A DNA stretch of 64,000 nt, from assembly GCA_030867875.1 (NCBI GenBank), contig JAOWCC010000064.1, positions 36,168,802 through 36,232,801 on the forward strand. Direction: 5' to 3'. This document shows positions 30,001 to 62,506 of this stretch, in pieces. The DNA comes from Actinernus sp. WN-2022 (lineage: Eukaryota; Cnidaria; Anthozoa; Actiniaria; Actinernidae). Position 1 is the stretch's first letter; each line of letters starts with the position of its first letter. The translations under genes and the position numbers were made by a program. Under the pieces are notes generated by a model. The model saw only the letters and a program-made list of their open reading frames with translations, had not been told where the DNA came from and searched no databases.

Positions 30001-33000
30001 CACCCATCCTTCTCTTGGATATACATGTGTAATTAGTGATAAACATTAAGGGTTGACTAGGTCTCCTAGATTGAATCAGTCACCCATCCTTCTCTTGGAT
30101 ATACATGTGTAATTAGTGATAAACATTAAGGGTTGACTAGGTCTCCTAGATTGAATCAGTCACCCATCCTTCTCTTGGATATACATGTGTAATTAGTGAT
30201 AAACATTAAGGGTTGACTAGGTCTCCTAGATTGAATCAGTCACCCATCCTTCTCTTGGATATACATGTGTAATTAGTGATATACATGTGTAATTAGTGAT
30301 ATACATGTGTAATTAGTGATATACATGTGTAATTAGTGATATACATGTGTAATTAGTGATATACATGTGTAATTAGTGATATACATGTGTAATTAGTGAT
30401 ATACATGTGTAATTAGTGATATACATGTGTAATTAGTGATATACATGTGTAATTAGTGATATACATGTGTAATTAGTGATATACATGTGTAATTAGTGAT
30501 ATACATGTGTAATTAGTGATAAACATTAAATTTAGGGTGAAAGGGGTTTACCAAGAAAAGTGTCTTATCAGTTGCCGTCTATTCCATTTGAGCTTATTAA
30601 TTTGGAAGGTTAATCTGTGGAGGGAAACTAATGCTACCGCATAAATGATTATATCTATAAACTAGAAATTGTGTTCAGTTTTAGAGCACTGTGGAGAATT
30701 GCTGCTGAGTTATACGTATTTGAAATGTAGAAAATACATGAAAGCGAGGCTGGGAAGGCTTCGTTTTTTTCTGATACAAATGGCTGTGAAATTTCTCAAG
30801 ATTACTAATGTCGACATGCTTTTTCATATGGCAATGTTCATGTTTTCTGTACATATGGATAAACTTTTGAAACAGGAATACACAGTTATGAATAAGATCT
30901 ATTCTAATATCACAAGATCACTAGTAACTCGTTCACATGACAATGTTCATGCTTTCTGTACATGTGGATAAACTATTGAAACATTAATACACAGTTATGA
31001 ATAAGGTATATAGACCACCTCACTTTCAGATTACCCCTTACAACTTATATTTCAGTCTATCCCATCACCCTCAGTTCTCCTTGTATTTCTACTTTTCCTT
31101 GTTCTTTTACGTTTCCTTCTCTATCACCATCTCAGCCTCTCACCTCCCCTACCCAGTCCATTCCACCTTACCCCATTCCTCTCCGTGATGAACCTGCAGT
31201 AAATCTTCATTTCATCTTAGGTTGACGAGATGTTTGGATTTCTGCCTGAAGAGAAGACTGCGTCAGCCCCACTTGCCCCTTCTGCGTTCAGGGTAAGATG
31301 AACCTAAGTTTCCAATGTTTCTAAACTCTGTACCGCCTCGGGCGTCAACTCTACAGATTTGTAATCATTATTAACCTTATTCATAAAAGTATCAAAGCGA
31401 GGCTAGTTATGCCAGCTTGTCACAGGAAGAGAACAATCTACAGTCGATGGTGGAAAATAATGCTAATTTTTATAACACAAAAGAACACAACAGTGCGGTA
31501 CGACAGGCCTGCTTCACACTACCGAACAAGCAACATACGCAGACGTACAGTAATCACATATGCGAGAAGAACAAGTATTGGTAATGATCAATACCGCATT
31601 ACTGGGTCTCCGTATGTTGCGAGGCTAGTTATGCCAGCTTGTCACAGGAAGAGAACAATCTACAGTCGATGGTGGAAAATAATGCTAATTTTTATAACAC
31701 AAAAGAACACAACAGTGCGGTACGACAGGCCTGCTTCACACTACCGAACAAGCAACATACGCAGACGTACAGTAATCACATATGCGAGAAGAACAAGTAT
31801 TGGTAATGATCAATACCGCATTACTGGGTCTCCGTATGTTGCTTGTGCTCATGCTTATCTTGCCAGTGTGAACCAGGCTTAAGACATACTGACCGGCTTC
31901 AATATTGCGATCTGCCTCGAACTGCCTCGTTCTGGTACCTTATTACCAGACTTCTCGGGCGGGCATGAGGTATCAATAAGTTGAACATTTCCTTACTTCT
32001 TAGGATTTAGAGCATCAACAAGAACCCGCGATCTCTACTGACGAAGAAGTCGTTACCATGACAGCAACAGAGGTGAGTGTTATCCCTCAGTTTACAAAGG
32101 CACAAAAACATTTCATCAGGGTTATCACACCAACATAGAAGAAACAAAGATAGCAGATGAACACAACAGAGTTCCAAGGCCTTTAGTATTCTCTAGTTAC
32201 ACATTATTATGGTATATTTTAAACTAAAATTGACTCAGACTCTGTTCCAGACAGGACAGCGAAGAAGCCATCTTTCGGGTGATAAGAGACCATTTTATGT
32301 GGAATCTTCGTATAGGTGGTGTCGAGCCAGGAAAAAGTGAACTGTGGCAACTGTATTCACGTTAATTCGATTCATTAGAAAACTGCTGACAAGTGACAAT
32401 GCGGAAACAAAAAAAGTATTAGCAGTGGTCTCGTCATCTACTAAATAGACTGCTGAATAGCCAGGGCGCATGCGTGAACTGACGCGAAATTGCCGTAAAC
32501 ACTATCTTGTGCGGGCGCACTTCACTGTGTGCACCCTAAAACAATTGAATTTATCAGTGAAGTCCAATAGGTACCGACCTTAAAAACAGTCCGTCTGATC
32601 TTGTGTCGGTGTTTAGAGTAAATTATTTTATTCCAGTGTTCAAAACTTAAACTACACTGTTCTTAGTTTCTGAACGAAATGGTGTGAGTATTTGAAGCTG
32701 AAACTTGCTAGAAATCTCTCATTCTTCGCAGAAACCATGAAGTTCAATTTCCGCCATTTTTATACCCGCTGCTGTCGTCCTTAGTGGCCCACGTTATTCA
32801 GCTCTGTGCTGGATATGTTTATCTTGGAAACGACAGGTCTACAAAATGCTGCGCATCTACAGCGGTAGAAATCGCGGGAGCAGCTCTATATGCTTCTAAA
32901 TGGCAACCTCGTTCCCAGGGGTCTTTACGCGCCTAATCCAAGACGACGCCATCATGGATTAGGCGCGTAAAGATCCCTGGGAACGAGGTTGCCTAAATGG

Positions 33001-36000: not shown

Positions 36001-39000
36001 AATATTGGACAACATTTACTTGCCATTGATTCCAATATGAAGGTATTAGGTCGAAATGGCTTTAGACTTCTTCTATATTTTGAAGAATGAAGATGGGGGA
36101 AGGGCCATGCCGCTGTTTGGTAGGATTTCCCGGCATGCTTTGCGGTCATTATGGATGAATTTAGCTTGCTGTGAAGTGCTTGTGGACAGAATGGCTTGGT
36201 GCTGGGCAAGTTTAGGTGTTGGGAGACAGAAAGTGAGGTTAGTGCAAACATGAAACTCTAAATTTTATGTGAAATATGCATTTTTGTGAGAAAATTTAGA
36301 ATCTGAGGGGAAATATTTTTTTCTGTAACTGTCATTTTAGTCCCTTTTTCTGAAGTGAAATAATGTCAACTATAGTTAACTTATGCAAAGTAAGGGGGAT
36401 TTAGATGAAATTATTCATTTTTAATATGCCTAATGCAGTTCAATTGGATCATTGGTCTATACATTAAGGTGTGTGGGAATCTCAGGGCATTGCTCTTTGA
36501 ACTTAGTCAGATTTATACCCTCAAAGCAAGTAACCAGTAATAGTGCCATATGGCACTCTTGGGGTTTAAAGGGTTAATGCCTCGTCCCGAGGGAAACCTG
36601 TCACGCTCTGCCCACGTGCGCAACAATGCATGACGTCATAGGTTTCAACATTTTCATCAACGTCATAGTTTTCAAAATTGTTATCAACGTCATAGTTTTC
36701 AAAGTTTTTATTGACGTCATAGTTTTCAAAAATGTTGCCCGCTCATCTATAACAGGTAACAGTTTGTTTGTCACTGTCAAGTGTAAATCAACCAACGTGT
36801 GTTATATCTGGAAAAATTACAGCAATATAATAATTTTAGTTGTCATAAACGTTTCCTGGACAATTGCAGTACTTTTTATATTCTTTTTTTAATATTAAGT
36901 GTTATTAGTTGCCAAGAGTTGCTAGTCTCTAGTGTTCTTGTGGACATTATTCTATATGTAACCATGTAAACTTCTGAAAGTACTTTCTTGATGAAAGTTT
37001 TTGTACATTTAAGTGTGGATTTTGCCGTTAATCTGTGTAAGTTGTCTCTGTGTTATTATAAAATATAGTCCCCTTGTTGACCGAGTGCGATGTACGTTGT
37101 ACCATAGGTTATGGGCCGAGTATTTCTTTCCCTTTTTTATGGCCCAAGCGCCAAGAGGATCCATAACTTATGGGTACAGACCGAGCAAACGAGGTTAATA
37201 GATGGTTTGCACTCAATCCCCAGAGATTCAAATGACAAAGGGCATGGCGGCCATGTTGGTGTACAGAACAAAAGAAGCTAATGAGGAATCTATTGTTAAC
37301 TGTACACCAACATGGCGGCTATGACGTCACGTGCAAAGGTTCCATAAGATGTTTATTATATGGCTTCATTTTCTTTGAGACGGGAAGGACGGCAGGTCCG
37401 TATGGGAAGTTATGGACGGCAGGTCCGTATGGCAAGTTATGGACCGCAGGTCCGTATGGCAAGTTATGGACGGCAGGTCCGTATGGCAAGTTATGGACGG
37501 CAGGTCCGTATGGCAAGTTATGGACGGCAGGTCCGTATGGCAAGTTATGGACGGCAGGTCCGTATGGCAAGTTATGGACGGCAGGTCCGTATGGCAAGTT
37601 ATGGACCGCAAATTGACCAATCATAGCTCGCAAGATTACTTTGTAGCTATATAATAAATATAATTACAATATTTCTTGTTCTCTACTTCATCAGAGTTCA
37701 ACAACAACTGCGCGGGAGAAGGAAAGAGAGAGAGAAAAGGAGACACTTCGTAAGCGAATCGTGTCCTTGACTCTAAAGAGAAAGTCCAAGATTACCAAGG
37801 TAGGCGTTTTTTATGCTAACCTCTGACCGTAATACCGTATACGGTTATGGAACAGCAAGCTGCCCTTTTTCCAATCAAAGTACGGTACGGTCGAAGAACG
37901 GTTGCGGTCAGTTTTACGTTAAGTCGTAACTTGGCGCGGAATGAGTGGCATGTGTTCACCTCCAGGCTATTTTGCACAGTGATGCGATCTCGGAAGTGCG
38001 CTGGAAAATTGAAATCTGGGTGAAATTTACAGAAGAATGGGCCAAAACAGGAGAATATTACATGTGTTTCTGTGACCTTGTGTTGGCCCCTAACACAGTA
38101 GATGATGTGTTTATTTATAGTGGCGAAGTTCTGGTATGCGATTACGTAGAGTTATAGAAACACGAGTGGGAGTTTGGGAAAACGAGAAATGGCAGTGGGA
38201 ACACGAGCCCGAAGGGCGAGTGTTTCCACAGCTATTTCGAGTTCTTCCAAACTTCCACAAGTGTTTCTATAACACTATAGAAACAAGGAGAACATGTTTT
38301 CTATTTCCTTTATAAAATAACCCACAGAAAATAAGTACTAGCGCGCTCAACTTTCTATGTTTCTATAGAGTTATAGAAACACGGCTTTCAGCCAATCAGA
38401 GCGCGCGTACTATCGAATCTATTTTATAAATACTAATGCAGGATATTCCGAGTTTGAGTAGCCAATCGGAGCTTGCGAAAAGCGCTATTCTCTTGTGTGG
38501 TATATACTAAACTTAGCATTTTTTAAGCCACATTATTACAATACTGAAGTCCTACAACTCTGTATTCAGGATGTAACAGCCAAGTTAAAAGAAGCAGAAG
38601 AAAGCGGAACTCTGAGCAGTGGGTACGGCCCTCTCTCGGCACAGGACCGCCCTACATCCAATTTAGAAAAGCTCCACTTCATCATAGGTCACGGGATACT
38701 ACGGCGTGAGCTACGTGACGAGATCTACTGCCAGATCTGCAAGCAGTTGAGCCAGAACCCGTCCAAGACGAGTCACGCAAGGGGCTGGATCCTGTTGTCG
38801 CTTTGCCTTGGATGCTTCGCTCCGTCTGAAAGGGTAAGTGAATTGATCCTTTAGCGATGTTGAAATATGCGGGGCATACGTAGTTGTACATAGACTTGCC
38901 ACCTCTTATATGTAATAGCTCTAACGACCAAGCGAGCAAACAAAGTTGAAATATGAGCCTATGCGCGCGCCAAAATCAAAATTAGAATGTCTGAGTTACA

Positions 39001-42000
39001 CAGTATGGTGGTATATTAGGATTACTTTGAAATGAAACATAACTGCATTACCTTTATTCTCTCCATCAACAAAAGACAAACCTGCAAATGAACTGTTCAG
39101 CTAACTAACAAGAAGACAAACAAACGAGCTTGCGCGCAAACAAACTATGGAACTTACAGACAGACAGACACACAGATACAGAACAAGCAAACGAACAAAC
39201 GAGCGAACCAACAAACAAACAAAAAGGTAAACAAACAAACTAGTAATCGGTGCCAGCACGCAGACAAACGGATGAACTCAGGGACAGACACGCAAACGAA
39301 AAAAACAAAACAAGAAGAAGTTTATTTTGTTCTAATAATTTTCAAAAATAATAAATAGTAATAATAATGATATCCAGATTTAGTACAAAGAGGCTCAGAA
39401 TAACTAGAAAGGTAAACTAAGCTGAGTCACCAAAAATAGATTACATGCAGACAGAACTACAGAATTACTACGAAAGATGTTTAAAGATGCATTTCACGAA
39501 ACAGACAAAAGCAAGCAGAAATCAGCCGATTTCAATGCCTTGTGTATGTTTGTTTCAGTTCGTGAAGTACTTGAAGTGTTTTATTAGTGAAGGTCCCCCG
39601 GGGTACGCACCTTACTGTGAAGAGAGGCTGAGAAGAACTCAACAGAATGGCTGTCGACACCAGCCCCCAAGCTGGCTAGAGCTGCAGGTACGCATCAACA
39701 CAACCTCGAGGTTGAAAAAATGATAATCACTCATTTTCAAATCACTTCAAAATAATGATAATCATTATTCTTAAAACCAGTCAAAGCCACAATCTGAACG
39801 GCGGTAGACGCGCTTAGTATAGTGGTCATGACGCCAGCACTACCGAGCATTGTGCGCAAACGGCCACGAGTTCGAGACCCAGTTGGACCGCTCTTCAGTC
39901 CTGTTTACCTGTGAACCCTAGCTCTAGGTGAGTGAGAACCCGTCGTTTATCCGTGAACTCATCCGATGGTTAGGGTTAGGTTTGTGGTTTGTGGTTAATG
40001 ATTATCATTATTTTAAAGCGAGTTGACAAATAAAGATAATCATTGTTTTAACCTCGAGAACGTGTTGTACACATGAATCAATCTCATCTCATCCTAGTCC
40101 AGTCCTTGTGCAGTCCCATCCTATCTTTCGGCCGTTCCATAGATTGGATCGGTCGCGGGAAAGAGAGGCCAGCAGATGTTGCATGCGCATGCGTAGAGTG
40201 CCACTACGATCAAATTTTCAGATCGTGATATTTTTGCGTATTTGTAAAGTACAGTTGCTATATGTTTTTCTATCCACACCGTTTTTTGATATGACAATGG
40301 GAAGTATTATTTTGGGGGGTCCGAATCCTGAGTTTTTATGTCCGCCATTACTCGAACCCGTTCCCGCTGTGACAGAGCTACGACAGAGCTAATTTCCAGC
40401 GGACGTGACGTCATTTTCTCAACACAGCAACATGCGGGGTAGGCCTAGACATAAATATCACTTAAAATCGTCTAAATATCTATCCAGAAATTCCCCCCCC
40501 AAAAAATCTAAATATCTCGAAAAAAGTTCTAAATATCTCGAAATAGTTTCTAAATGTCTTGTTGTATTTCTTATAAATATCACAAATTTGACTAATTTGG
40601 ACTCGATAAGAACAAAAGTTTCATAGCTAATAGCATTAGTGCAGCCTCCACATAGTCCTCTGTTGCTGGTCTCCAAACATCGTTACGAGTAATGAAAAAA
40701 CTCTTTCGGCTGCTGCAGATGATGGCTGTACGAGTACCATTTTATTTACGGCTGATGACCGAGAAAATATGCATAAAACTTATAAGAAAATTCTAAATAT
40801 CCCAAAATATCATTTATTCTAAGTATCTGGAATTTTCATCGACACTCTTTATTGTATTGCGGCTATTAGCATTGCTATTGTTGGCGCAATTTCCTTTGAT
40901 CCTAATTGTCCCAGTACATGTTTCCTCAGTGGTAAGCATACACTCAACACTACATAAACCGTTTCCCCACCCACAGTTCCCTCTTTTGCTCTGACGAAGG
41001 GCTAGCGCTCGAAACGTCAGCTGCTACTCGCTACCAACGGCGGTTAGCATACCTTAATGGCCTTTTAGGTCATTACACCAGTGTTTATCTTCCCCGCCGA
41101 CGCAGAGCAACACTAGTTTTTACAGGAACTAGTAACCCATAGTTTTTTTCATATCTGAAACATTTTCGATATTTTCCCTGTTTGTAATTTTATTTTGGTA
41201 CAACAGCTTGCAGATTTTTTTTCTCAAATTGCGCCACTCCCTCAAAGATTAAACAGTTAGCCCCGTAAATTCCAATTCAAGAAACCACTGTGTAACACTA
41301 GAAAAACTGCACATCTTCCATGGGCCGGGGGCAAGTTTCTTGGAAAATAATTGGAATTTCCATAGTTTTGCACACTTCCAACGAAACTCTAATTTCCGGC
41401 TCTCCCTTCATAAATTCGAATAAACGCTCTGCAGTAAGTTCCCTGTCCGTATGACAAAGTAATCAATTGTTATGTCGTGGTATTTGTTGTACAGGCTACG
41501 AAGTCCAAGAAGCCTCTCATGCTTCCCATCACGTTCATGGATGGTACAACTAAGACTCTACTCGCCGACTCGGCTACAACAGCCAGGGAACTGTGTACTC
41601 AACTGGCTGACAAGATCTCACTGATGGACCAGTTTGGCTTCTCTCTATACATCGCTCTGTTTGATAAGGTATAAGTTATGATGATGAAGTAACAGGATTG
41701 TAAGACTCCAGTCAGAAACGTGTCTATGCCCCCTCCCCCTCCTACCTCTCCCTTACCCCTACCCCAAAAAACTGATATTGTAAAAAGGAGAGCAAACGCA
41801 CTGGCCTATTAAGCAGTGTTGTGTTGTTGTTGCTAGGTGCCTATTGACCAGTGTTGTTGTTGTTGTTGCTAGGTGCCTATTGACCAGTGTTGTTGTTGTT
41901 GTTGCTAGGTGCCTATTGACCAGTGTTATTGTTGTTGTTGCTAGATGCCTATTGACCAGTGTTGTTGTTGTTGCTGCTAGGTGCCTGTTGACCATTGTTG

Positions 42001-45000
42001 TTGCTAGGTGCCTTTTGACCAGTGTTGTTGTTGTTGTTGCTAGATGCCTATTGACCAGTGTTGTTGTTGCTGCTAGGTGCCTATTGACCAGTGTTGTTAT
42101 TGTTGTAGTTGTTGCTAGGTGCCTATTGACCAGTGTTATTGTTGCTAGATGCCTATTGACCGGTGTTGTTGTTGTTGCTAGGTGCCTATTGACCAGTGTT
42201 GTTGTTGTTGTTGCTAGGTGCCTATTGTCCAGTGTTGTTGTTGTTGTTGCTAGGTGCCTATTGACCAGTGTTATTGTTGTTGTTGCTAGATGCCTATTGA
42301 CCAGTGTTGTTGTTGTTGTTGCTAGGTACCTATTGACCAGTGTTGTTATTGTTGTAGTTGTTGCTAGGTGCCTATTGACCAGTGTTATTGTTGTTGTTGC
42401 TAGGTGCCTTTTGACCAGTGTTGTTGTTGTTGTTGCTAGATGCCTATTGACCAGTGTTGTTGTTGCTGCTAGGTGCCTATTGACCAGTGTTGTTATTGTT
42501 GTAGTTGTTGCTAGGTGCCTATTGACCAGTGTTATTGTTGCTAGATGCCTATTGACCGGTGTTGTTGTTGTTGCTAGGTGCCTATTGACCAGTGTTGTTG
42601 TTGTTGTTGCTAGGTGCCTATTGTCCAGTGTTGTTGTTGTTGTTGCTAGGTGCCTATTGACCAGTGTTATTGTTGTTGTTGCTAGATGCCTATTGACCAG
42701 TGTTGTTGTTGTTGTTGCTAGGTACCTATTGACCAGTGTTGTTGTTGCTGCTAGGTGCCTATTGACCAGTGTTGTTATTGTTGTAGTTGTTGCTAGGTGC
42801 CTATTGACCAGTGTTGTTGTTGCTAGATGCCTATTGACCGGTGTTGTTGTTGTTGTTAGGTGCCTATTGACCAGTGTTGTTGTTGTTAGGTGCTTATTGA
42901 CCAGTGTTGTTGTTGCTAGGTGCCTATTGACCGGTATTGTTGTTGTTGTTGCTAGATGCCTATTGACCAGTGTTGTTGTTGTTGCTAGGTGCCTAATGAC
43001 CAGTGTTGTTGTTGTTGCTGCTAGGTGCCTGTTGACCATTGTTGTTGCTAGGTGCCTTTTGACCAGTGTTGTTGTTGTTGTTGCTAGGTGCCTATTGACC
43101 AGTGTTGTTGTTGCTGCTAGGTGCCTATTGACCAGTGTTGTTATTGTTGTAGTTGTTGCTAGGTGCCTATTGACCGGTGTTGTTGTTGTTGCTAGGTGCC
43201 TATTGACCAATGTTGTTGTTGCTAGGTGCCTATTGACCGGTGTTGTTGTTGTTGCTAGATGCCTTATTGACCAGTGTTGTTGTTGTTGCTAGGCGCCTAT
43301 TGACCAGTGTTGTTGTTGTTAGGTGCCTAATGACCAGTGTTGTTGTCGTTGTTAGGTGCCTAATGACCAGTGTTGTTGTTGCTAGGTGCCTATTAAGCAG
43401 TGTTGTTGTTGTTAGGTGCCTATTAAGCAGTGTTGTTGTTGTTAGGTGCCTATTGACCAGTGTTGTTGTTGTTATTGTTAGGTGTCGAGTCTCGGCAGCG
43501 GCAGTGACCACGTGATGGATGCTATCTCTCAGTGTGAGCAGTACGCTAAGGAACAGGGAGCCCAGGAGAGAAACGCGCCATGGAGACTGTTCTTCCGTAA
43601 GGAGATCTTCTCCCCGTGGCACGACCCTGTCATTGACAAGATAGGCACTAACCTCATCTACCAACAGGTCGTGCGAGGAATCAAGTTTGGCGAATACAGA
43701 TGTGATCGGGTACGTTTCTCTTGGTGTTTTTAGAGGTTACTTTGATTGCGCAAAACTACAAAGCGGCTAAATACAGTAATTGCTCACTCCATTACGTCCG
43801 TATTTTAGGGTTAGGTTAGGGGTAGACGTTTAGCAACGTAGTGACCTTGATATTAGAGACGAGGAGTTACCAATTCAAGTACGTAGCCGCTTGTTAAAAC
43901 TGTACTAAGGAGCTATGTTATACTGATGCGTCTCAGCAGTATATATCTAGAATGTAAAACAGTTCATATCGCGAGATCAGTCGAGAAAGAGGACTACAAG
44001 CGCGCTCAAAATAATGATAACCCCCCTTTTCTTTGGCTGCGTGGCCTTGCGCGCGTAGCCCTGTGTCTCGACTGATTTTCGCGATATGAAAGGAACTGTC
44101 AGTCTAGTATCCATCCATCCATATTAGTTTGCACACTGACACACAATCTCCATTTTTTTTATATTAACTATGTACTTCAATTTAGCTTTTTATCTACCAT
44201 TATTGTATTTATACCGATATAGTGTGAATATACTTGAACTTGAACTCACACTTAGTAACTTCACAAGAGGAGATGTGCCAACAATACTCGATACTACTCG
44301 AGCTGTGACCGGGAAAAGGGGGCTTTTACTCGACGTTGTAATTTAGTGTAGTACTGTGTTTAACGTCACATCCCTTTACCAGGATGAAGACCTAGCTGAC
44401 ATCGCAGCTAAGCAGTATTATGTGGAGTACGGCAGGGATATGGTCTCTGACCGCCTGATGAACCTACTGACGTCATACCTCCCTGAGGCACTGCTGCAGA
44501 CTGGACGAGGAGCCTATGAACAGTGGCAAGCTACGATAATGACCGCACACAAGAGGGTGAGTAGGCAGACTGATCTACACTAATGGGGTTCCTACATAGA
44601 CTTCGTGACTTAGAACAGATTTAGTGGGAAAGCGATAGAGGGTTTGCACCATCACGTGACGGAAGTTATGTAATGTGTTCAATCATGTGCACAATTAATA
44701 ATAATAATTATACTTTATTAATCACTCCAAAAACGGCTTTTCAGTAATTAATTACAAATATAAAAATACTTAAAATACGAATATATATGTATATATATAA
44801 ATATTAAATTGTCCTAATAATAATGATATAATATAAATATACGAATATAAAGATATGCCTAAGTACACCAACATTCCTCTAGGAGCATACTCTTAAAATC
44901 AACCTTAAAATTCTTGATATTATCGATACCCCTAATGCTGTCCGGCAGCTCGTTCCGTAGTCTTATTGCCCTGAATAGAAACGAACGAAATTAAATCTCA

Positions 45001-48000
45001 AAGGAATGAAATGATACTGTTTCTGCCATCCAACATTGGCTTCCGCTACGTGACGGTGCAAACCCATGTAGCCGTTCCCAAACCGTAATGTGACTTTTCT
45101 ATAACTCTGTAATTTCATTGGATCAGATCTGGAAGGACAAATACAATAGGGAAACCATTTCAATGTCACGGCATGCCGTACTGTAACACTGTAATTTGGT
45201 TGGATTAGAAGGACAAAAACAATAGGGAAACCATTTCAATGTAACGGCATGCCGTACTGTAACACTGTAATTTGATTGGATTAGAAGGACAAATACAATA
45301 GGGAAACCATTTCAATGTCACGGCATGCCGTACTGTAACACTGTAATTTGATTGGATTAGAAGGACCAATACAATAGGGAAACCATGTCGAGGGGAGGGT
45401 ACGTATTAAACATTTTCAGCGAGAAAGAATAGGCCTTTTGCAGGAAACAGTCACGTGCTGATATAATACTTTATTAGCAAATGAATTGAGCTCGTGATCC
45501 CCATGGGAAAGGCGTTGCCATGGATGCTGGGTGGCAAGCTATCTTTAAAAACGCTGTTTTAGAAAGATCGACAATCGATTGGAGGTGGAAAATAGCATCA
45601 GTTACAAACAGGTTTTGCTAATAACACTCCCGATCTCGTACAAGTGCCTTTAAATAATTATCTGAATTAAGATTTTTGCCACCCGATACAACCACGTGAT
45701 AGCATTCCTGCAAAAGGCCCACTAGGCAGCATCACTTATTCTAATACGGCTCTCGCTCATAGAACCCTTAACAAAGTTGAAATCTAAAAATGATGATAAT
45801 ACAAATCTTTATTTCACGGAAGTAACATCTTTACCTTTCAGTAATGCCCTGTATATAACGTAGAATACCGGTTTGACGGTAAACTCATGACGGAGCTCGG
45901 CAAAACACATTCGCAACTCGTAAAATATCAGTGGGAAAACCTGTAAAAACATCAAATAAGAGGTATTGAACAATGGACTGCGAGCTAAATTATATAGCCT
46001 TCAAATCTGACTGTAAGAGTGTTTTTCTTCAGGGTTATTTCACACTACAGGCAACCGATGCTCAGGTTGTCAAGGAAGATGTCGTGAATTACGCACGCTA
46101 CAAATGGCCGCTCCTCTTCTCGCGCTTCTACGAAGCCTACCAGTTCTCTGGACCCAGTCTCCCCAAGAATGACGTCATCATCGCGGTCAACTGGACCGGC
46201 GTGTACGTAGTGGACGACCAGGAGCACGTGCTCCTCGACCTCCAGTTCCCGGATGTAACTGGCGTGACAAGTAATAAGTAAGTTTGAGCATTAAGAAACA
46301 GCTTGAAAGAAAATGAGGTTAAGTCATGCTACGGCTAAGATCAATTGCACTGAATGGCAAGGAATGTAAAAAGGTGTTAATTTCCTATTCTTCTTTCTCG
46401 TAATTTCATTGGTTTCAATAGCAAACCATCGAAATAATACAGTTTCATTCAATATTTTTTAAAGTTTTAATTTATTTTTGATCAAACTAACTATGGTTTA
46501 ATTTCATCTCAAATTTGCGATTGAAATATCTTTTGTTTTCTTCCTTTCCGATTGGCTGGGTGTGGCTTCTTTGAGTGGTACAATTATGGAATACCCCGCA
46601 TTTCGAAAGATCACTTTAAAACTGTTCCAAAACTGTGCAAAATTCTCCATTATAGTGCAGGTGTATGTAGTGTCGTTCTTTGAATGACTTTTGGTCGAAG
46701 ATTTGTATGAAAATTTGAGAAAATGAATTATTAATGATACAAGTTGCGGGGTATTCTATAATTATTCACCCAATTAACAAGCATATAAATCATATATGCT
46801 GTATATGCTGAATAATCCTGATAATATAGGCAATATTCGTATTTTCAGGGACGAGCACTCGATGAACGCTCATGCAGTAATTCTTTTCTAATGCTGAATA
46901 GTGCTGAATAGCTTTTAGCAAATTTCCGCATGAGCCTCCATTGAGCTCGTCTGTGAGACTACGAATAATGTATATTGTTGCTGTAATATTACCAGGACGA
47001 ACAGACTTGAAGGGTCCAGTTTTACTATCACTACCGTCAAAGGTGACGAATACACCTTCACCTCCGCCAACTCCGAAGACATTCGCGAGCTTGTCCAGTT
47101 CTTCCTCGATGGGCTGCGTAAGAGATCTAAGTACGTAGTGGCGCTAATGGACTACCAAAGCCCAGGTGACTTATCTTATGCTTGAACAATACGCCTTATT
47201 ATCACGTGACCCGTACGGCCCCCCGCGCGCTTTCCTTTCAAAACCATTTACCAAAGTCACGTGACGAGAGCCGAAGTGAGCGAGCCGGAAAAAGCCGTCG
47301 GCCGTGCTCGATTTTGTGATTGTTGTTTTGCAAACTAAGTGGTCATATGATAAAACCTCATTGACTGAGTTAGGTCGGGCCGGACGGGAAAATATCTGAC
47401 TCTTGATCATTTGGTACGTGCGCTCGGTCCATATGTCATCACCTCGAACCAACTATATACCCGTCTGGCCCCAGTCCCACTCGGTCAATACGTACCTATT
47501 AATCACTAAACCATAAAATACCGCGCTTTACGCGCGACATAAAAGTAATATTTCACATGTATAATATATACAAAATGTTACGGCTGTGACGTCACACCTT
47601 CATCTCGCGCGTAGAAACCCGATCATTTATAGCTTGGTGGATAATAAACAGAATCTTACATCATGGCAGTTTGGAGATAAGGAGAAGTCTACTTTTGAAG
47701 AACGAACGTATGCAGATAAAATATCAAGAGGCTAAAAAAATATTAGGAATAGTAATGCAGGGACTTTAATGTAAAATATATATATATTTTTTGTTATAGC
47801 AGGCTGAGTATTACAGCTTAAAGCTGGTGGGGGCCTACTTTTACTCCTCACACACTCCCCACTACATTAACTGTTTTGGACACAGCGGCCTACACGAGGA
47901 ATCAAGAAATAAGGACACGAAGTAGCACATTTCTAGGGTGTGAGACAATAAATAGGGGCCTTCAAGTGCAAGTAGCGCCATAAAACAACATGGATTATAC

Positions 48001-51000
48001 TTCATATGTCTAAATTAGTTTTCTTTGAGAGACAGGAGCAGCAATTACACTCGTTCTCAATAACACGTGCAGGTTCGAAACGAAACTCCTGACTTCGAAG
48101 TCGTTTCTGGTGGATGTCAATCAAACGGTTTCCATGGAGTTTGAAGTGAACCGTTCGGATAACTACCATTTTGTAAACATAATAATAATAATAATAATAA
48201 TAATATTTTGACAGGAAAGCTCCACTCACAATTTGTGATTTTCAGGGAGGTCCTGTATTAAAAATATATATTTCACTAATATATGGAAAGCAGGAAAGTT
48301 AAATGGTTGAAATAAAATAGAAATAGAACAAGGATTATTATGAAATTAAGTTATGTGCCAGTAAGATTTAAAAATTGATAATGTAGTTGATTGTATAACT
48401 TCAGAGTCTAAAGAGTTTGGCAAAGTCTTTCCCAAAGTCGCTATCATGCTTAGAGCCAAGGGTTTGCAAAATAGGGAAATCACATAAACTTTATGTGTGA
48501 GCGAGCGGTTTGTGTATAAGATCAAAATAGGGAAATCGCATAAACTTTATGTGTGAGCGAGCGGTTTGTGTATAAAATCAAAATAGGGAAATCACATAAA
48601 CTTTGTGTGAGCGAGCGGTTTGTGTATAAGATCAAAATAGGGAAATCGCATAAACTTTATGTGTGAGCGAGCAGTTTGTGTATAAGATCAAAATAGGGAA
48701 ATCGCATAAATTTTATGTGTGAGCGAGCGAGCGGTTTATGTATAAGATCAAAATAGGGAAATCGCATAAACTTTATGTGTGAGGGAGCGGTTTGAGTATA
48801 AGATCAAAATAGGGAAATCGCATAAACTTTGTGTGTGAGCGAGCGGTTTGTGTATAAGAAATCTGATTGTTTATATAGCTTTCAAAGGTCTTGGAAAAAT
48901 AATTATAGTTATTTTTATTCATCCAGTTGCAGATATGCTCCTTATAAGAGGTTTTATCGAGCAATACCCTCGAGCTCCAGGCATGGATACAACATTCGAC
49001 AGGGGAAATATTTTTTTGAAACTCTCAGGACATGGATTATCGGCAATGCTCTCCACTCTCGACTGACATTTCGGTGAGGAATTCAAGCAAAAAACAATCG
49101 TTTTTCGGCTTAGTATCCGCCATTTCTCTACCTATGTCGCCTAAAATTACTTACGATTTCGTTGACCTCCTACACTATTTATGTTTCCTCCACATCTGGG
49201 AGTTGTATGGCGACGTTTTCGTAGTATTGAGATTCTGTTTCATCTCCTTCAGCAAATTTAAAACATCCCTCGTATGCTATCGAAGCATGCAGACCAGTGT
49301 TGCCATAGAAATATAGTTGAATGACATCCACCAAATTGACGTTTTCCTTTGGAAATTCAATTTCGAACCTGCACGTGTTATTGAGAACGAGTGTAAACTA
49401 GAATAAACGCTACCCGAATTGCGGGATTGATTCATCTTGTGATGTCACAATGGAAACCTACGGATTTTATTGAAGTAGTTTTCTCTAGGGAGGGAGTTGA
49501 TTAAACTTATGACGTCACAGGATCCATGAAAAGTAACCAAAATTAGGGATTAAATGCCAGAAATGTTACAAAGTTACAAGATTAATACCTTTTTGTGAAA
49601 AAAACAAGCACAATAGTACAATATATATTTTTAGTTTTTTGACATGAAACTTGCACTGTAAGCAACCAGGACGACGACGGCGACGGAGTTTCACATTATG
49701 TTTTTGCAGGGAATGGTAGCAGCTTTTCAAGACCTCGAAAGTGCATTATTACTCGGGCTGCCTGTGGCAGCGCCGAGTCTTAAAATGCAAGTGGTTATTA
49801 TTATTTTTTTTAATCAGTGTCAAACTGCTTCTGCGCATGCGTTAAAGGTCAAATTCTAACCAATCAGATTGCACTGTGCTGGTCACGCAAACAAAGGTTA
49901 GATTTCCTCAGGCGCGCTCAGATAAGAAAATTCAAAGCTCAGACTAGGCGAGACAAGGAGATATCAATTTCCAATAGTCATTGTCAGAAATCTATTCCAT
50001 CGTGGGCAATGATGCAATACAACCTAAATTTGGGTCAGGTCCATGTTTTACGACAGAATAACCAGAGTCTTTCTACTGGATTCGGAGAGCTCGAGACATT
50101 ATACAAGTCTGCTAATATGGGGAAAACTGAAACAAAACATGAACTTTGACGGCAGAAACCCTCATATTTGAGCCAAGCGGAATATTTACATGATCCGCTA
50201 AGATTTTTACAAATCTAATTAGTTAAGCAGATGTACGCAGTGTATGCCAACTGAAATGCTGTGCTCGTTTTGTGGTTACGGCTCAGTGGGGCAACTATAC
50301 GAACAAGAAGCATGAACTGCCAGCAAAGAGAGAGGAATTGATCGGAGACGTTAAATTACGTTCCTGTGAAGAGGATCAACATTCAAGTTTTGTAGCTTGA
50401 GACTGTCTTCTGCCGTGACTCGTGAGAGAAATTGGAAAAGATCTAGCTGTTTCATTCAGACACTGGCAAATTTATTGAAAGCTACGGGCTTACTTTATGA
50501 GATTATTATTCATTGTGGAATGAAAGGAAACAGGTTAGCTGAAAGTTAAGTTCGAGGTAGGCTTCGACTTTCATTCCGATTCAGTGCATATGTGCACGAA
50601 GGTGTCAGTTACGTAAGTACTGTAAGTAAACTCCTTTTGATTTGAATAAATTTCCTCTCAGTTTGTCTGTTAATGTACTTTTCCTTCTAATTATCGCTTT
50701 ATTTAACATCTGATTTAGAGTATGCGTACCTCAGAATAAAGTATTTGAAAGGTCAACTGAATTCTTGTGTCGATAGGCGCAAATGTTTTTTGTGAAACAG
50801 TCTGTGTATATGAGAAGCGGCTTAATAGAAGAGCTTTCTCATTTATAGGAATTACAATTTTTTTTCTTGCTATGAAATTTATGTTTCATTTCACATTACA
50901 CTTGAATGTGCCAGTATTCTGTTGTTCGAATCCTGCGTTATCATAGTCATGCCATAAAAGCGATTAATAGACCAGTCTGTTTTTTCGACGTTCTCACTGG

Positions 51001-54000
51001 CGAATTAAAGCACGACTTGATACTAGTATTTCATCTTCAATCTCATGTGGCCCGAGTGAAAGCCCAGATGGGCTCTTGTTTTGTTATAGGACATAGGAGA
51101 ACCATCTTCTATTTGTTTCATAATATAAAATTATATCTACGCGGAAAGAAATGCTCGAGCGTGCATTATAAGAAAATGAAGCACGCTGAGCAGCCAATGA
51201 AATCGCGGATTCTTAGGATGCTCACGTAATTAATATCATAATTAAAGATAATTTGATTAATTCTCTTTTCAGGCGAAGGCTCGTCGTTCCTGAGCTTCAA
51301 GAAGGGAGACCTTATCATTCTAGAAAACGACACAGGGGAGACCGTGTTGAACTCGGGCTGGTGTGCTGGTCTGTGTGAACGGACTGGCAAGAAGGGAGAC
51401 TTCCCAGCAGAGTGTGTGTACGTGCTACCAACCACCACGAAACCAGGCCCAGAGAGTTTGGTGAGGACTCTATATTATTGCCGCATACAACACAGAATGA
51501 CAGATCTGAACAGCGTGACGCGCGGGGACTAAGTACGACAGCAGCTTAAACAAAAATGGCGGAAACACTTTGCGAGTACCTTCATTCGAAGAATAAGAGT
51601 ATTAAAAACTTTCATTAAAATCTCTAATTTATCGAAACATGTTAAAATTCTGGATACACCTTGAACAGCTCCCAGAAAATAGTATTGCAAAACAAGGTCT
51701 TCAGATTTCGAAAGACTTGGCATCCTCCAACGAAAATAGTTTCATATCTTCGATAAATGTATTTGAGTCAGGGAATAAAAAAACCATACAGGATATTGAC
51801 ATAAATAAACCAAACAAATGGTTATCCGCTATGAAACAAAATATAGACAATCAATCACAGTTACATCAATTACATCTCATAAATTCAAATAGAAAACTAG
51901 TATTTTATTCAATGTTCAAACATGATACGAAGGCTTCTACTTACATAGAGCTGATAAAAAAATCAGATCACCGAAGAATGACTGCAAAACTTAGATCGGG
52001 AAATCATAATTTAAGGATAGAAACAGGCAGACACTCTTTGCCCAAAATACCCGAAGCTTCAAGGGTATGTGAAATGTGTGTCACAAATGAAGTAGAAAAC
52101 GAAATACATTTCACATTTCATTGCAGCTTATATAATAACATTAGAAAAGTATTCTTCAACGACATTTGTAATAAATACAAACATTTTACAAACTTAAATA
52201 TCAAAGACAAAACTTTATTTCTCTTTAATAACATAGACCCATTTGTATGTAAGAAATTGGCTCACTATATTTTTGTAGCCTTTGAAATAAGAAATCATTG
52301 TAATATTAGAAATTGTTCTCAAAGTTAGTTTAGCTTCTTTTAGTTATGTTGTTTATGTTTTAGACAATACCATTTATGTATATGGGAATGCTAATAAAGT
52401 TTGTATTTGTTTTATGGCAAACTTCGAATGCCTATCAGCCCGATGTGTTACCATTAAAGCGGTCGATTCTACATCAAGTAAATAGGAGAATAGTAAAATG
52501 TTTCTAGATTTGAGTGTTGCATCTATAAGTTATAGTGGTTTCTATTTCCAATATGCTAATTATGTGGTCACAGGAGGCCAACGAAAGGTAATGTCTTTCT
52601 CCTCGTGATCGAAACTATTTCTGATTTATACAAAATATTTGCTAAAATCACTGATAAGGCCCACCTATAACATGGATGTGTACAAAAGTTATTTATCTCT
52701 GCCAGCACGTTTTTGTATAATAAAAGAATCCGCCTGTGACATCACATAATTAGGATATAGGAAATAGAAACCTCTATAACTCATAGGCAACACTCAAATC
52801 AAGAAATATTTGAATATTCACCTATTCACTTGATGAAGAATCGATTTTAATGATAACAAATTTGGGCTGATAGGATGGCAAAGAGTCGAGTGGATATGAA
52901 AATACTGCTTTTAAGAGAAATTCAGAGCAACTTGAAATCGGTTCACTGTAACCAGAAATCAAGTTTCTAGAATAAGCTTTTGTAATCCACTTTAATCTTT
53001 GCCGTGCTCTATCAAAAAATAAACTTTGCTTCAGAGTGCCCCTTTAACTCGTCGTGTGTGATCCACAATGGATTTTAAATTCAGCTTGAGACGTTATGTT
53101 TTAACCAATTTGATGAAGTAGATCTTACAGAAACTAATCTTCATTAACTTTTTTGTAGATTGCTTTCAGTGACCAGACTCTAGAAAGCTCTGAAAAGATC
53201 ATCGCAACTACGAAAACAGCCATCTACCCAGAAGAACAGGAGACGTACGACAAGCCTTACACACTAGAGGCTTACTCTGTTGATCACTTTATGCCACCTC
53301 AGAAAAGAACGCTTAGCAAGACACTGCAGTCACAGGTTAAGAGAAAAGAGAAGAACATCCCGTGGGCGTTCAGTAAGGTACATGTGAGTTAATATGAGCG
53401 CTCTGATTGGCTGTGAATCCTGGTGTCTGATTGGCTCGCACATGTAATGAATTTACATATTTATATTTCATACAAATAAGTCATGCGATTATTTTGTAAA
53501 GGAAGAAGCCATTCGAGTTCGTGCTTCGATGTCGTGCTTCCATGTCGTGCTTTCATGTCGTGCTTCCATGGCTATCGTCTTCCAAACGTTATGATGATAC
53601 GAAAACTTGTTTAAATTTCTATTTCTAAAGTATTGCGCGTATATGTGCCTGTTTAGTGTATGCTGAGATTTTGTATCGCGTGTTTCAAGAATGTTTTGAT
53701 TGTTGTGTATGTTGTGAAATCCTCGGTCAAACGGTTTCAACATTGATTCGACATTCCGAGAACAAACGGTTTCAGCATCTATTGACTTCTATTGTTCTCG
53801 GAAATGTTTTCTGGCCATGTCAAAGGGTCTCCGATGTTGAACCGATGTTGAAACCGATGTTGAAATCGATGTTGAAACCGATGTTGAAACCGATGCTGAA
53901 ACCGATGTTGAAACCGATGTTGAAACCGATGTTGAAACTGATGTTGAAACTGATGTTGTACCGATGTTGTACCGATGTTGTACCGATGTTGTACCGATGT

Positions 54001-57000
54001 TGTACCGATGTTGAACCCGTCAAGCAGTATGTTCATATTTTGTAGGATCCAGTGAAGCAACCGCTGCTGAAGAGATTAGCAGGTCAAGAGGAGCTGGCAC
54101 AGAAAGCCATCCAGATATTCTTGGATATCCTTTCATGCGAAGTGATTATTGCCTGGATAAAATACATCTGCTTTTGCTGAAGGCTAACTAATTTAGTCGC
54201 GCTTATTGTCTACTGCTTCACAGCTTTCACACACCTTATATATTTCGAGTGGGAACCCATCGTGACCATTAGCTTCAATGCTGACGAGGCCAAGAGAGAC
54301 AGAAACAACTGTCCGTGGCTGCTAATTGCTCAGGCAATAGGCCTTTACTGGAAACAGTCACGTGCTGATATAACACTTCAATAACCAATGAATTGCGCTC
54401 GTGATCCCATGGGAAAGGCTTTACTGGATGGCACACAAACTTCGAAACGCTGTTTTAGAAAGATCGACAATCGATTGGAGGTGGAAAATGGCATTTACAA
54501 CAGGTTTTGCTAATAACACAAGCGATTTCGTACAAGTGCCTTTAAATAAATGAAGTAAAAAAAGTACGTGACTTTATATTTAAGTGTCAATGTATTTAGC
54601 TTTGCAGCTAATTGGGGACACTAGTCCTACGATTTTACGTCCTTATCCGAGAAGACGTGAATGTCTAACCGTTTACTGTATTATGTAAAGGCAGTGCCTT
54701 CTACTCAGTTATTTTATGATCCTGAGTGTTGGCCAGGCCGGGTATTTGAACCCGTGACCTCCCGCTCGACAGAGCGGCGCTGAACCACTCACCTAACCGG
54801 GAGGCGGTAAGTCATTGTTTTGCCCTCCAATACAACCACGTGATAGCCTAACTGCAAAAGCCCATTGTTCTTACTTTTCGTCAAAAAAGTTTTAACTCCC
54901 TGTTGTCGACATGACCTTTGCCCCTACCGCCTTTACCATACCCAGTATACGTAGTAGGTGCCCTTAACTGTTGACCACCTATCATGAAGTACATGGGTGA
55001 TTACCCTTCTAAACGAGCGAGACAGGCCACGGACCTGACAGATGGCATACTGGAACCTGCCCTACTACACGTGAGTCGCCAAGCTTTACAGCTTTTTTCA
55101 CCTTGCCCATCTTGTTCACATACGTTTTGAAGTTTATAATTTTGGGGCACTATTTTACACCTATTTATAGTACTAAGGTGCCGGTCATTAATTATGGGAG
55201 GGGTTGGTGGGTGAGAAAAGAGGAGCGGCCTGCTTTTTTGCCTTCACCAACTGCCCACCTCCCATTATTAATGACCGGTCTCTAAGTCGAAAATAAGAAA
55301 ATGAATCAAATGATGTATATCTCAGTTTCTTAGTTTAAAGGAGCTCATTCAACCAAGATGCATTGCGGGCTCAAATTTTTCGAACCGCCATTTTCGGGGC
55401 CCCCGATAATGGCTCTGGAGAGCTTCTTGAAACAAATCCTATTCCATCGGTCTCACAGGGGCATACCAGTTGATTACTTATAGGGGAAAATGTTCCTTAT
55501 TTATTAGCTTTTGTGTTCAGGGGAAATTCTGGAGTCGCCTTTGGTCAGTGAAATTATTACTAGAGCCTGTACTGGAGTTAGCTGACTGTTTGATCGTAAT
55601 TCCTACAGTTTATCCAAACCAGGGCCTTTCTACATTGGCTTGATCAGCCCGCAGACCTAAATAACAAGAAATCTAAAGGTCAGAAGAGCTGAGCCTTTTG
55701 CTTATCATTATCGGACACCAACATTTAAAGCAAATTGCCTTGACTGAAGACTCGAGTACGCGGTACACGCGCGGTACATGCAAGATTGAAGATTCAGTAC
55801 AAATCTCGCAGTTTCTCTCTTAGTCTTATAGTCTTGGTTTTCGCTCGGGGACAACGCTGAGACAATTAAAGTAAGTAAAAGTGAAATGTTGTGTTGATAT
55901 CTGCATGAGCGGCTGTAAAGTGGAAACCTATTTTATAAATGTTTCTTTGCTGATGAATAAACTTCAAGTTCAATCAAGTGCCGCTGGGCGCTCAGAAAAA
56001 CTGATTGATCGAATTGTTTTACCCAGCATATCCATTGTACGATTAACGGAAGTCAAGGGGCTTTTAAAGTGACACAAACTGGCTGAAATTCAGGCTAACA
56101 AACAATAACATTATACGGATTTGATTCCTCAAATTTGATTTCAAATTTGCATAATTATTGCATTGGCCGTGCGTTCTCCATACCACATTTCGACTCGACC
56201 TTGAACACAAATAGAATGTGGCAAACAGTACTTCAACATTTCAAACCAGCATTTTGGCAGGGACAACCTAGCTCCTTTCTTTCGACTACACGTTCGTGCA
56301 CGCACAAGCCTAGAAAGGAAAGAACTCTAAATGTATAACGCTATCATAGAATTGATTAATTTCCTTTCCACACGATCTGCATCGCTGGAACTTGGTCCAG
56401 AAGTTGGACAAGTTGGTTCGCTAGATCGAGCATGAGATCGATTGCTAGCATCACGTCAAGGATTTTTTATCGGAGAACCGTAGTAATTCCGCTCATTCTA
56501 TTATATTTCTTCAAGTATAAAGGCAACCGATCTCGGCCATTCAGTTCAACTCGTAAACTCTATTTATAAAAAGCCCGATATCACATTTTCTGATTGGCAG
56601 CTGTCCGATTTCAAGTAGTTTCCCCATATGAAAACAATAACAGTGACTCGCAATGCATCTTGGTTGAATGAGCTCCTTTAATGAGTTGGGAGTTTCAGTG
56701 GGATATGCAGTGGACATGCGCGAGTCGAGATAAATAATACGTGTTTCTCGCGCGTTTCTTAGAGAAAGTGAAGCGGTTGGTAAAAATCTTCCTCTCAAAT
56801 CCCTGCAATTTGTAGCGAAAGAAACTCAAAGAGGAGATATTGGTAGTTGGCAAATGTTAGTTTCTGAATTGTTTATCTCGACTCGCGCATGTGCAGTGCA
56901 TGTTCCGCTAGAACCCCGAACTCGCTTATTGTGTCGGTTACCATGGGAACTCGTTTATTGAGCATGAGAAGTATGTGTGCTCTATCGACATTTTTTGTAA

Positions 57001-60000
57001 AATAAAGAAGCTTCACTACGTGAATATTTCAGCTCCAAATACCAACAGTGATCTAAATGTTTGTACGTCGATAACGCGGTAGTGTTGACAAAACCGGTTT
57101 TATTTTAATTTCCCAGGAACCTCTGCGTGACGAAGTTTACTGCCAGTTGATTAAACAAATCACGGACAACAGACTTCCGTAAGTACAAAGGAAGCACAGT
57201 GAAGGCTTTCATATCATCACTGACTATATCTCTACACTTAACAGCTCTGAAGTACTTTATTTATTATCAGTCGACTCATTTTATACCCAGTTTTGATTTG
57301 TTGAGAGCATTGACGTCATATATAAAAACTACCTACGACAACTGTTCTGCACATGCGTAGTACCTAGCCTACAGATGGCGTGCGCATGCTCAGTACAGAG
57401 CGCTTATTAACAAGAAGTGTAAAAGGCCCACACGCTCCATTAAAAAGTGGTGTTACCTGTTCCCTTTAGGTCCAGTTCAGAACGAGGCTGGGAACTGCTG
57501 TGGTTGTGTACTGGAGTGTTTGCTTGCAGGTAACGTAGTGTCTCTAAACAAACTTCAAAACCAAGTTCTTACAAGAATCAATATCCTTTCAAATCAACGT
57601 GTTTGCGTTTGTTTGTATGGCTACTGATATTAACTATATTGTGTTCCTTTTGTAAATAATGTTCGGTAGCTCGATGCTGCTTCGGGAGGTGAACCAAGTA
57701 TTCAGGTCGTGGATTAACCGGCAGCCTTTGGGGCACGATTGCCTGGCGAGACTGCAAAAAACCATTAGAGTTGGTCAGCGGAAATACCCACCACATATCG
57801 TAGAGGTCGAAGCCATTCAGGTATGTATGCCGTGCAAGCTATGCTGTAAGTTTAGTTTCAGTTCCTTTAAAACCTCTTTCTTGCATGTGTTAAGTACATT
57901 TGCCTCATAGATCAACGTTAAAAATCTGGGAGTATTTGGTGTATATTGTTTGTGTGCAATTTCTAAATTTTCTCCAATTTCTCTCTCCTTTAGCACAAGA
58001 CAACACAGATCTTCCACAAAGTGTATTTCCCGGATGACAGTGATCAGGTTCGAGATTACTCGCTACCAGTTTTACCCTCAAAAATATTATATATCTTGAT
58101 AATAAAAATGTTATGAAGACCGAGAGGCTAATATCTTGCGAGTACAATATTTATTGAATCATACCTTAGTTCCCGTTCATTCTATGTAAATGTTGATGGA
58201 AGTAAGTCAAGTGAACGTAGTTTGTCTTGTGGTGTGCCCCAGGGGTCGGTATTGGGCCCACTGCTCTATTTACTCTATACTGCGCCTGTGGGGGATATCT
58301 TGAGGTCTCACAATCTACTCTACCATCTCTATGCAGACGACACTCAATTGTACATTACATTTGATGCAGATTCAGAAATAGATGCATGCGCGGCAAGGTT
58401 AAAGGTGGAAAGATGTGTAAGGGACATCGATGACTGGATGGTTAACAACCGGCTACGATTGAATGATGACAAGACTGAGCTTATTGTTTTGAGCTCCCGG
58501 TTTAAACCACGACCAAGTATTACATCTGTTGAAGTGGGTGATGATACGATCAGACACCGGTCTACTGTTCGTAACCTGGGCGTTATACTTGATGAGTCCA
58601 TGTCCCACGGAGATCATGTCAGTAGCATATGTAAATCTGGACACTATCACCTTAGGAATATAGGGAAAATTAGGAAATACCTCGATGAAAAATCAACTGA
58701 AACTCTTATACATGCGTTCGTTACTGCAAAACTAGATTATTGTAATTCACTTCTTCATGGACTCACTAAGCATCAATTAGATAGAATGCAGTCAGTATTA
58801 AATACAGCTGCTCGCATCGTTACACTTACACGTAAATATGATCACATAACCCCAGTTCTAATTAGATTGCACTGGCTGCCAGTCTCACAGCGCATAATTT
58901 TTAAGGTTTTACTATTAGTTTATAAGGCCCTTAATGGCCTATCGCCACAATATATTACAGAACTACTCAAATATCGCCCTAATGTTCGCACGCTGCGCTC
59001 TACTGACCAGAAATTATTAGTCATTCCTAAGTCACGCACAGTCTCATATGGTGACAGAGCTTTTTCTGTAGTGGGTCCAAAAGTCTGGAATACATTACCG
59101 TTATCAATCCGCCTCTCACCAAATGTAGATATTTTTAAAAAGTCACTAAAGACACATCTTTTTAAACTAGCCTATAATTGATGTACAATATTTTAATTTG
59201 ATTTGATTTTAATTTCTTACGTCATTGTCCATAGGGAAAATTTTTAGGTTGATTATTTTTAAAAATATTGTAAATAGGTTATTTCATTTTAGTTTTAATT
59301 ATTCAATTCTTTATATAATATTCAATGTAAAGCGCCATGAAAAAATAGTTGATATGGCGCTATATAAATAAACTTATTATTATTATTATTATTGAAAATA
59401 TCCATTGCCAGTTTTGATAATAACAATACTGAAATGACTTGTTAAATCCAACTTTAGTGCGAAGCTAATTTCACCGAAATTGTGACGTCGTGACTACGAA
59501 ATGACGTCACAGCTTAGTGCTGATCACTGAAACTCTAACGTCAGACTCAGTGCAAGTCTATCGTATGACGAACTCTTGGCCAGTCGGAAACTATATTGTT
59601 ATTTAAATATATATTTAAACGGCAGTTTATTGTGATGTTTTCTACAGGCGTTTGAAGTCGACTCTGGGACGAAAGCTAAGGAGTTCTGTGCTATTATTGC
59701 CCAGAGACTTGGGCTCAAGTCTTCAGAGGGATTCAGCCTGTTTGTCAAGATCACAGACAAGGGTACGCTGAAATAGCAAACCATCAGCACGAAGTCTTGG
59801 CTTGTACCTTGTTCAAGCAAGGCCATGCTAAAGTGTATTGATGTTAGCCATAAATGGTTTATTATAGCATATTTATACTTGGGCCGCGTTTTTCGAAGCA
59901 AGGGTAACTTAATCCCTATCCCTAGGATAGCGCCAAATCTGTAATTGTAATCTGTAACGTTTAACCTCGGGTTGGCGATTTAATCCTGTGGTAGCGCTTA

Positions 60001-62472: not shown

Positions 62473-62506
<34 letters not shown>

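What the first reader, a model, noticed from the sequence alone, without database searches (positions are those of the whole stretch)
54125..54978. U12-type AT-AC intron within MyTH4-2 of myosin VIIA
The donor atatcctttc, branch-like cccttaac and terminal AC fit the minor spliceosome class closely, with an 11-nt branch-to-acceptor distance. Joining 54124 to 54979 gives [19 protein letters not shown], matching family spacing exactly; no GT-AG choice does. AT-AC introns are very rare, so this one in a hearing-related motor gene is worth tracing for conservation or loss across animals.
Basis: partly seen in the sequence, partly recalled or inferred. Interest (0 to 1): 0.8.

Follow-up and report, generated by a model that had tools for sequence, protein, structure and literature searches.

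The report
Ancient AT-AC intron in myosin VIIA
An anthozoan myosin VIIA gene carries a rare AT-AC intron of the minor-spliceosome class, and telltale errors in published protein models suggest the same intron sits at the same place in fish, turtles, birds and primates, including people, where the gene is needed for hearing.

Summary
At 54125-54978 the donor is ATATCCTTT (9 of 9 to the U12 consensus). CCCTTAACT (8 of 9) has its second A 11 nt from the last intron base, and the intron ends in AC. Of 61 length-keeping joins, only 54124/54979 has AT-AC, GT-AG or GC-AG ends and an open peptide. The joined peptide aligns without gaps to solved human myosin VIIa and VIIb. Of 27 introns placed in this gene, the other 26 are GT-AG and none has a U12 donor.

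New here: the intron is probably ancient. Of 355 myosin VII proteins fetched, 88 read on past the exon as D-I-L/P/H/R/F or D-M-L at exactly this codon. That is what a GT-AG-only gene model yields if the intron starts G|ATATCC. They come from fishes, turtles, birds, sirenians and primates, including one human model. Two of the three searches used scar-bearing queries, so 88/355 is not a rate.

It is a new member of a known kind. RNA from this species, the genome's minor snRNAs and vertebrate intron DNA could not be examined; the genome tool did not complete.

The parts
54125..54978 (+). U12-type AT-AC intron, 854 nt, phase 1, in the second MyTH4 domain of myosin VIIA
   Evidence: Only length-keeping join with AT-AC, GT-AG or GC-AG ends and an open peptide; best of 18 joins when length varies
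54125..54133 (+). 5' splice site ATATCCTTT
   Evidence: 0 mismatches to RTATCCTTT; the 26 other placed introns have 3-7
54961..54969 (+). Branch site CCCTTAACT, likely branch A at 54967
   Evidence: 1 mismatch to TCCTTAACT, 11 nt from the last intron base
54977..54978 (+). 3' splice site AC
   Evidence: an alternative AC at 54974-54975 would add one Pro and lies 8 nt from the branch A
54046..54124 (+). Upstream coding exon ([26 protein letters not shown] + G)
   Evidence: Preceded by a GT-AG intron 53378-54045; matches human myosin VIIa
54979..55070 (+). Downstream coding exon ([13 protein letters not shown]...EPALLH)
   Evidence: Followed by a GT-AG intron 55071-57116; matches human myosin VIIa
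54336..54863 (.). Two dispersed repeats in the intron: A (54336-54549 and 54818-54863) split by B (54560-54815)
   Evidence: A is 83-85% like 45428-45719, B 81% like 62329-62576; cutting B raises the alignment score of A from 270 to 314
2659..61069 (+). Myosin VIIA gene, from the middle of the motor to the last FERM region; start and last exons outside the window or not found
   Evidence: tblastn with a recalled human guide; best database hits named myosin-VIIa; MyTH4 6.6e-30

Best explanation
This is a working U12-type (minor spliceosome) AT-AC intron in the second MyTH4 domain of an anthozoan myosin VIIA gene. By established knowledge of the pathway, U11 snRNP pairs with ATATCCTTT and U12 snRNP with CCCTTAAC; U4atac/U6atac/U5 then complete the complex, and the exons join at 54124/54979, restoring the codon G|CT (Ala). 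Shown here: the sequence signals, the join that keeps the protein, and the same joined peptide in relatives' proteins. Inferred: which spliceosome removes it, which A is the branch point, and that the intron has kept its AT-AC class since the common ancestor of cnidarians and vertebrates.
For: Donor 9/9, branch 8/9, distance 11 nt; PMC3584512 (passages) gives 11-13 nt as the optimum and names donor and branch site as the defining features. Single suitable join of 61 and best of 18. Gapless to human myosin VIIa and VIIb. All 11 coral or coral-like hits (8 named, 3 unlabelled) have FL[AS][12 protein letters not shown], two of them as 2193-aa frames on contigs of only 9.2-9.3 kb, so almost surely spliced RNA. 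88 of 355 fetched proteins carry the read-through expected of a G|ATATCC donor at this codon, and the best GT-AG join on this very window gives the same form. Cnidarians are among the first groups in which U12 introns were reported (PMC2846911, passages).
Against: No RNA from this species. Minor snRNAs could not be sought (genome search did not complete, 16 calls). The branch motif alone is not decisive: one GT-AG intron (7631-9731) also has an 8-of-9 match. Pyrimidines before the acceptor (12 of 20) do not set it apart from ordinary introns. The relatives' proteins show the join, not the intron class. The Nematostella model is also broken elsewhere, in its motor part (seen), so its break here is weak evidence.
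Confidence: 0.93

Rival explanations
1. An ordinary U2-type GT-AG intron: the true junction is 54142-54989 (GTGATT...GAAG) or another nearby pair, and the protein differs slightly here.
For: Such joins are open; the best scores 148 against 168.
Against: It adds FLDILSCE and drops AIMK from a strongly conserved helix. All 11 coral-like proteins and the solved human proteins have the other spacing. The 9/9 donor with a branch site at the right distance would be coincidence.
Confidence: 0.03
2. A U12-type intron, but using the AC three bases upstream (54974-54975), wholly or in part, adding one Pro.
For: AC is present and the frame stays open (score 157).
Against: It lies 8 nt from the branch A, short of the 11-13 nt optimum (PMC3584512), and the extra Pro is in none of the 262 normal proteins.
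Confidence: 0.03
3. An AT-AC intron removed by the major spliceosome, since AT-AC ends do not by themselves define the U12 class.
For: PMC3584512 (passages) states that AT-AC termini are not exclusive to U12-type introns.
Against: Donor and branch site are close to the full U12 consensus, unlike the 26 GT-AG introns of the same gene.
Confidence: 0.01
4. Against deep conservation only: the D-I-L type forms in vertebrate models are unrelated annotation noise and say nothing about the intron's first bases.
For: No vertebrate DNA was read. Searches used scar-bearing queries, so the forms are enriched by design. One of the five other broken records (P0327) does not suit an intron ending in C. D-M-L, the second commonest form (33), has no obvious splice-site logic and fits ATAT only.
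Against: The first two residues are fixed (D, then I or M) while what follows varies between species and models (Y, P, LILG, YWLTQT, PLQ, SLGPRAPIM, H, R), as read-through of a fixed intron start would give. A GT start after the exon's G would give Gly. Two gorilla records differ in a 700-aa tail only here, by FIDIPVLK against FIAVLK.
Confidence: 0.07

Closest known systems
U12-type (minor) AT-AC introns of animals
   Same: Donor, branch site, branch-to-acceptor distance, AT-AC ends, phase 1
   Different: Nothing in the signals; the body is swollen by two nested repeats. No link of MYO7A to minor introns turned up in the paper searches made
Intron 38 of human MYO7A (exon number and c.5326/5327 recalled)
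   Same: Same codon (join Ala = residue 1776 by two counts) and, by recall, same phase; a human model and ape models read FIDIPVLK, as an intron starting ATATCC would give
   Different: Its DNA was not read here; whether minor-intron databases list it was not checked
U12 introns converted to U2-type at the same position (PMC7367187, PMC10639083, passages)
   Same: Would also leave introns at one position in distant animals
   Different: No conversion is seen in the models examined: the read-through points to AT, not GT

Membership tests
U12-type AT-AC intron | 5' splice site RTATCCTT(T) | tested here: met
   ATATCCTTT, 0 mismatches
U12-type AT-AC intron | Branch site TCCTTAAC | tested here: met
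   CCCTTAAC(T), 1 mismatch
U12-type AT-AC intron | Branch to 3' splice site 11-13 nt (optimum) | tested here: met
   11 nt from the second A to the last intron base
U12-type AT-AC intron | AT...AC ends at the join that keeps the protein | tested here: met
U12-type AT-AC intron | No distinct polypyrimidine tract | tested here: inconclusive
   12 pyrimidines of 20; two GT-AG introns of the gene have fewer and five the same
U12-type AT-AC intron | Minor spliceosome present in the host genome | not testable with these tools
   The genome search did not answer in 16 tries (first 4, last 73)
U12-type AT-AC intron | Spliced in RNA by the U12 spliceosome | not testable with these tools
   No RNA reads of this species; only joined proteins of relatives
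Myosin VIIA | Motor, IQ, MyTH4, FERM, SH3, MyTH4, FERM order with myosin VII as nearest relatives | tested here: met
   Exon order by similarity to a recalled human guide; best hits named myosin-VIIa; MyTH4 and RA_2 by Pfam in the 313-aa tail piece; the other domains were not run through Pfam

The most novel reading that the evidence does not exclude
MYO7A has kept one AT-AC minor intron at the same codon and phase since before cnidarians and vertebrates split, the human gene included. Correct production of this hearing and vision motor therefore depends on the minor spliceosome. Some human alleles near this acceptor (recalled: c.5327-11A>G and c.5327-14T>G) would then be U12 branch-site changes that GT-AG-trained tools misjudge, and many public MYO7A gene models are wrong here.
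Probability: 0.6. Interest if true: 0.6.

Novelty: new member of a known kind. Interest (0 to 1): 0.4.

Why it matters
It adds a clear and probably very old minor intron in a gene whose human form underlies Usher syndrome 1B (recalled). If the human intron is AT-AC, splice predictors and clinical rules built on GT-AG will misread variants there, and minor-spliceosome disorders would be expected to touch MYO7A. It also shows a cheap way to trace AT-AC introns without DNA: look for the fixed read-through peptide that GT-AG-only gene models leave at the donor.

Tried and rejected
Rejected: a GT-AG junction here; the donor 8-mer as evidence by itself (not enriched).

Led nowhere: tRNA and Rfam scans of the window (0 matches each). 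Ten paper searches in all. MYO7A with 'minor intron', with 'AT-AC', with 'c.5326+' and with 'c.5327-', and 'myosin VII' with 'minor spliceosome', each gave 0 papers. MYO7A with 'U12-type' gave 1, an unrelated review. MYO7A with '5327' anywhere gave 106 papers, 20 listed; in the 3 I opened the number stood only in identifiers of the reference list. MYO7A with 'exon 38' and 'splice' gave 4, none opened. Minor-intron database tables were not readable and may list the human intron.

Left open in the gene model: everything before 7499, and the junctions between 34188 and 38640 and between 51467 and 53237. Three exon pairs gave no join in the automatic step; two of these junctions (38834-39558, 43710-44382) were set by hand. 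For two of the 26 GT-AG introns (24956-25901, 26800-33864) the protein score alone slightly preferred an AT-AC join without a U12 donor (220 to 217, 155 to 148); the same happened at the open junction after 51467.

Full report
What is there. The window holds, on the + strand, most of a myosin VIIA gene. Exons run in order from the middle of the motor (about 2.7 kb) to the last FERM region (61.1 kb). The organism is most likely an anthozoan. Over MyTH4-1 to SH3 the product is 90% identical (450/502) to a Nematostella vectensis model (P0012) and 83-84% to the stony-coral proteins compared. Over 313 aa of the following tail it is 87% to Pocillopora, Stylophora and Oculina, 84% to Montipora, 82% to Acropora, and 79% to the Nematostella model, which is broken there. 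A sea anemone or another hexacoral is likely; the species was not identified.

The intron. Between the exons at 54046-54124 and 54979-55070 lies ATATCCTTTC...GCCCTTAACTGTTGACCAC. The donor matches the U12 consensus at 9 of 9 bases. The branch-like CCCTTAACT matches at 8 of 9, with its second A 11 nt from the last intron base. PMC3584512 (passages seen) gives 11-13 nt as the optimum, says that donor and branch site rather than the termini define the class, and says either A may be the branch point. The intron is phase 1. PMC7367187 (passages seen) reports a bias against phase 0 in U12 introns.

Why this join. Keeping the protein length fixed, 61 joins were listed. Three have a terminal pair on my list, and only the reported one is AT-AC, GT-AG or GC-AG with an open peptide; it gives [19 protein letters not shown]. 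Allowing other lengths, 18 joins were open. The reported one scores highest (168), then the AC three bases upstream (157), then the best GT-AG (148, [12 protein letters not shown]). The joined peptide aligns gaplessly to human myosin VIIa (5mv9_A) and VIIb. In the same gene 27 introns were placed: 26 GT-AG, 1 AT-AC. The 26 have 3-7 mismatches to the U12 donor. Not counted: everything before 7499 and two unresolved stretches.

Results against, or that weaken it. One GT-AG intron (7631-9731) also has an 8-of-9 branch-like match. Pyrimidines before the AC are not distinctive. For two of the 26 GT-AG introns the protein score alone slightly preferred an AT-AC join with no U12 donor, and two junctions were set by hand.

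Proteins of relatives. All 11 coral or coral-like hits (P0002-P0011 and P0013; 8 named, 3 unlabelled) have the contiguous FL[AS][12 protein letters not shown]. P0003 and P0004 are 2193-aa frames on contigs of 9.3 and 9.2 kb. The gene here spans more than 58 kb, so these are almost surely spliced transcripts. They show the joined exons, not the intron class.

Deep conservation from annotation scars. A gene predictor that allows only GT-AG must read through an ATATCC donor. On this window, where the DNA is visible, the best GT-AG join gives [12 protein letters not shown], using the AAG|TAC acceptor just inside the next exon. The same pattern appears in public proteins. 355 distinct proteins were fetched: the best 120 of 2939, 1686 and 1695 hits, with overlaps. 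262 are normal at the junction. 88 carry D-I-L (44), D-M-L (33), D-I-F (3), D-I-P (3), D-I-R (3) or D-I-H (2) right after the exon's F-x. 5 are otherwise broken. Searches used queries that carry the scar, so this is not a rate, whose query was normal, 2 of 120 were broken (P0001 with D-I-L, P0012).

Reading the scars. D must be GAY, so with the exon's G the intron starts A[T/C]; I or M adds AT; P, H and R are codons with C first, L is too unless TTR, and F suits ATATCTTT. A GT start would give Gly. What follows differs between species and models, as junk from different intron interiors would. Species among the 88, by the listings, include Chinese sturgeon, pike, piranha (myo7aa and myo7ab), Astyanax, Tetraodon, Takifugu, brown trout, three Oncorhynchus species, arowana, alligator gar, Erpetoichthys, painted turtle, olive ridley, many birds, dugong, a manatee, two lemur genera, pig-tailed macaque, Colobus, gorilla, bonobo and a human model ('isoform CRA_e', P0296). 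Two gorilla records (P0295, P0264) differ in the 700-aa tail only here, FIDIPVLK against FIAVLK, which equals a 6-nt extension ATATCC. In the other 12 pairs compared, some of them between species, the tail differs elsewhere too (7-166 positions).

The other five. The Nematostella model P0012 loses the exon before the join and restarts at YMGDYPSKR. It also looks broken in its motor part (seen), so it counts for little. Three cercopithecine records (P0338, P0340, P0342) read SPPVLK, which would suit an intron ending in C; a bonobo record (P0327, SPAVLK) would not (inference).

Human position. The join Ala is residue 1776 of the recalled 2215-aa sequence. It is residue 88 of the 527-residue chain 5mv9_A, which also gives 1776 if the chain ends at the C-terminus. 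From memory, human exon 38 ends at c.5326, the first base of codon 1776, the same phase. Also from memory, c.5327-11A>G and c.5327-14T>G are reported variants; they would fall in the TTAA of a U12 branch site. The searches made did not find these in the paper library.

The intron's body. About 516 of 854 nt are two dispersed repeats, one inserted in the other: repeat A like 45428-45719, repeat B like 62329-62576. Donor, branch and acceptor are untouched.

Verdict. A real U12-type AT-AC intron, very probably functional, and most likely an ancient one shared with vertebrates. It is a new member of a known kind. Its class in human MYO7A may already be tabulated in minor-intron databases, which could not be read. 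No paper text in the library linked MYO7A or myosin VII with minor introns in the searches made.

Noticed in passing
54336-54863 in the AT-AC intron; copies at 45428-45719 and 62329-62576: A repeat of about 290 nt split by a second repeat of about 255 nt, so most of the intron's length is nested insertion; a further weaker copy of the first lies inverted at 26330-26482.
   Followed up: partly
58132-59178: Reverse transcriptase reading frame (RVT_1, 2.3e-15) inside the GT-AG intron 58048-59647, a retrotransposon remnant on the gene's own strand.
   Followed up: partly
41804-43484: A 36-nt minisatellite of about 49 copies fills most of intron 41669-43481 and ends at its acceptor, each unit carrying a TTGCTAG/TTGTTAG that looks like a 3' splice site.
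   Followed up: no
53831-54019: A 12-nt minisatellite (CCGATGTTGAAA, about 16 copies) lies just before the exon upstream of the AT-AC intron.
   Followed up: no
63440-63600: An inverted repeat seen by eye (cttgcacaaggggcgtcataaagtg ... cacttcataacgccccttgtgcaag).
   Followed up: no
51606-52325: An open frame of 240 aa in the unresolved stretch after the SH3 exon; no Pfam match.
   Followed up: partly
P0012 (Nematostella vectensis model): Besides the break at this intron, the model has an unrelated-looking stretch before [10 protein letters not shown] in the motor.
   Followed up: no
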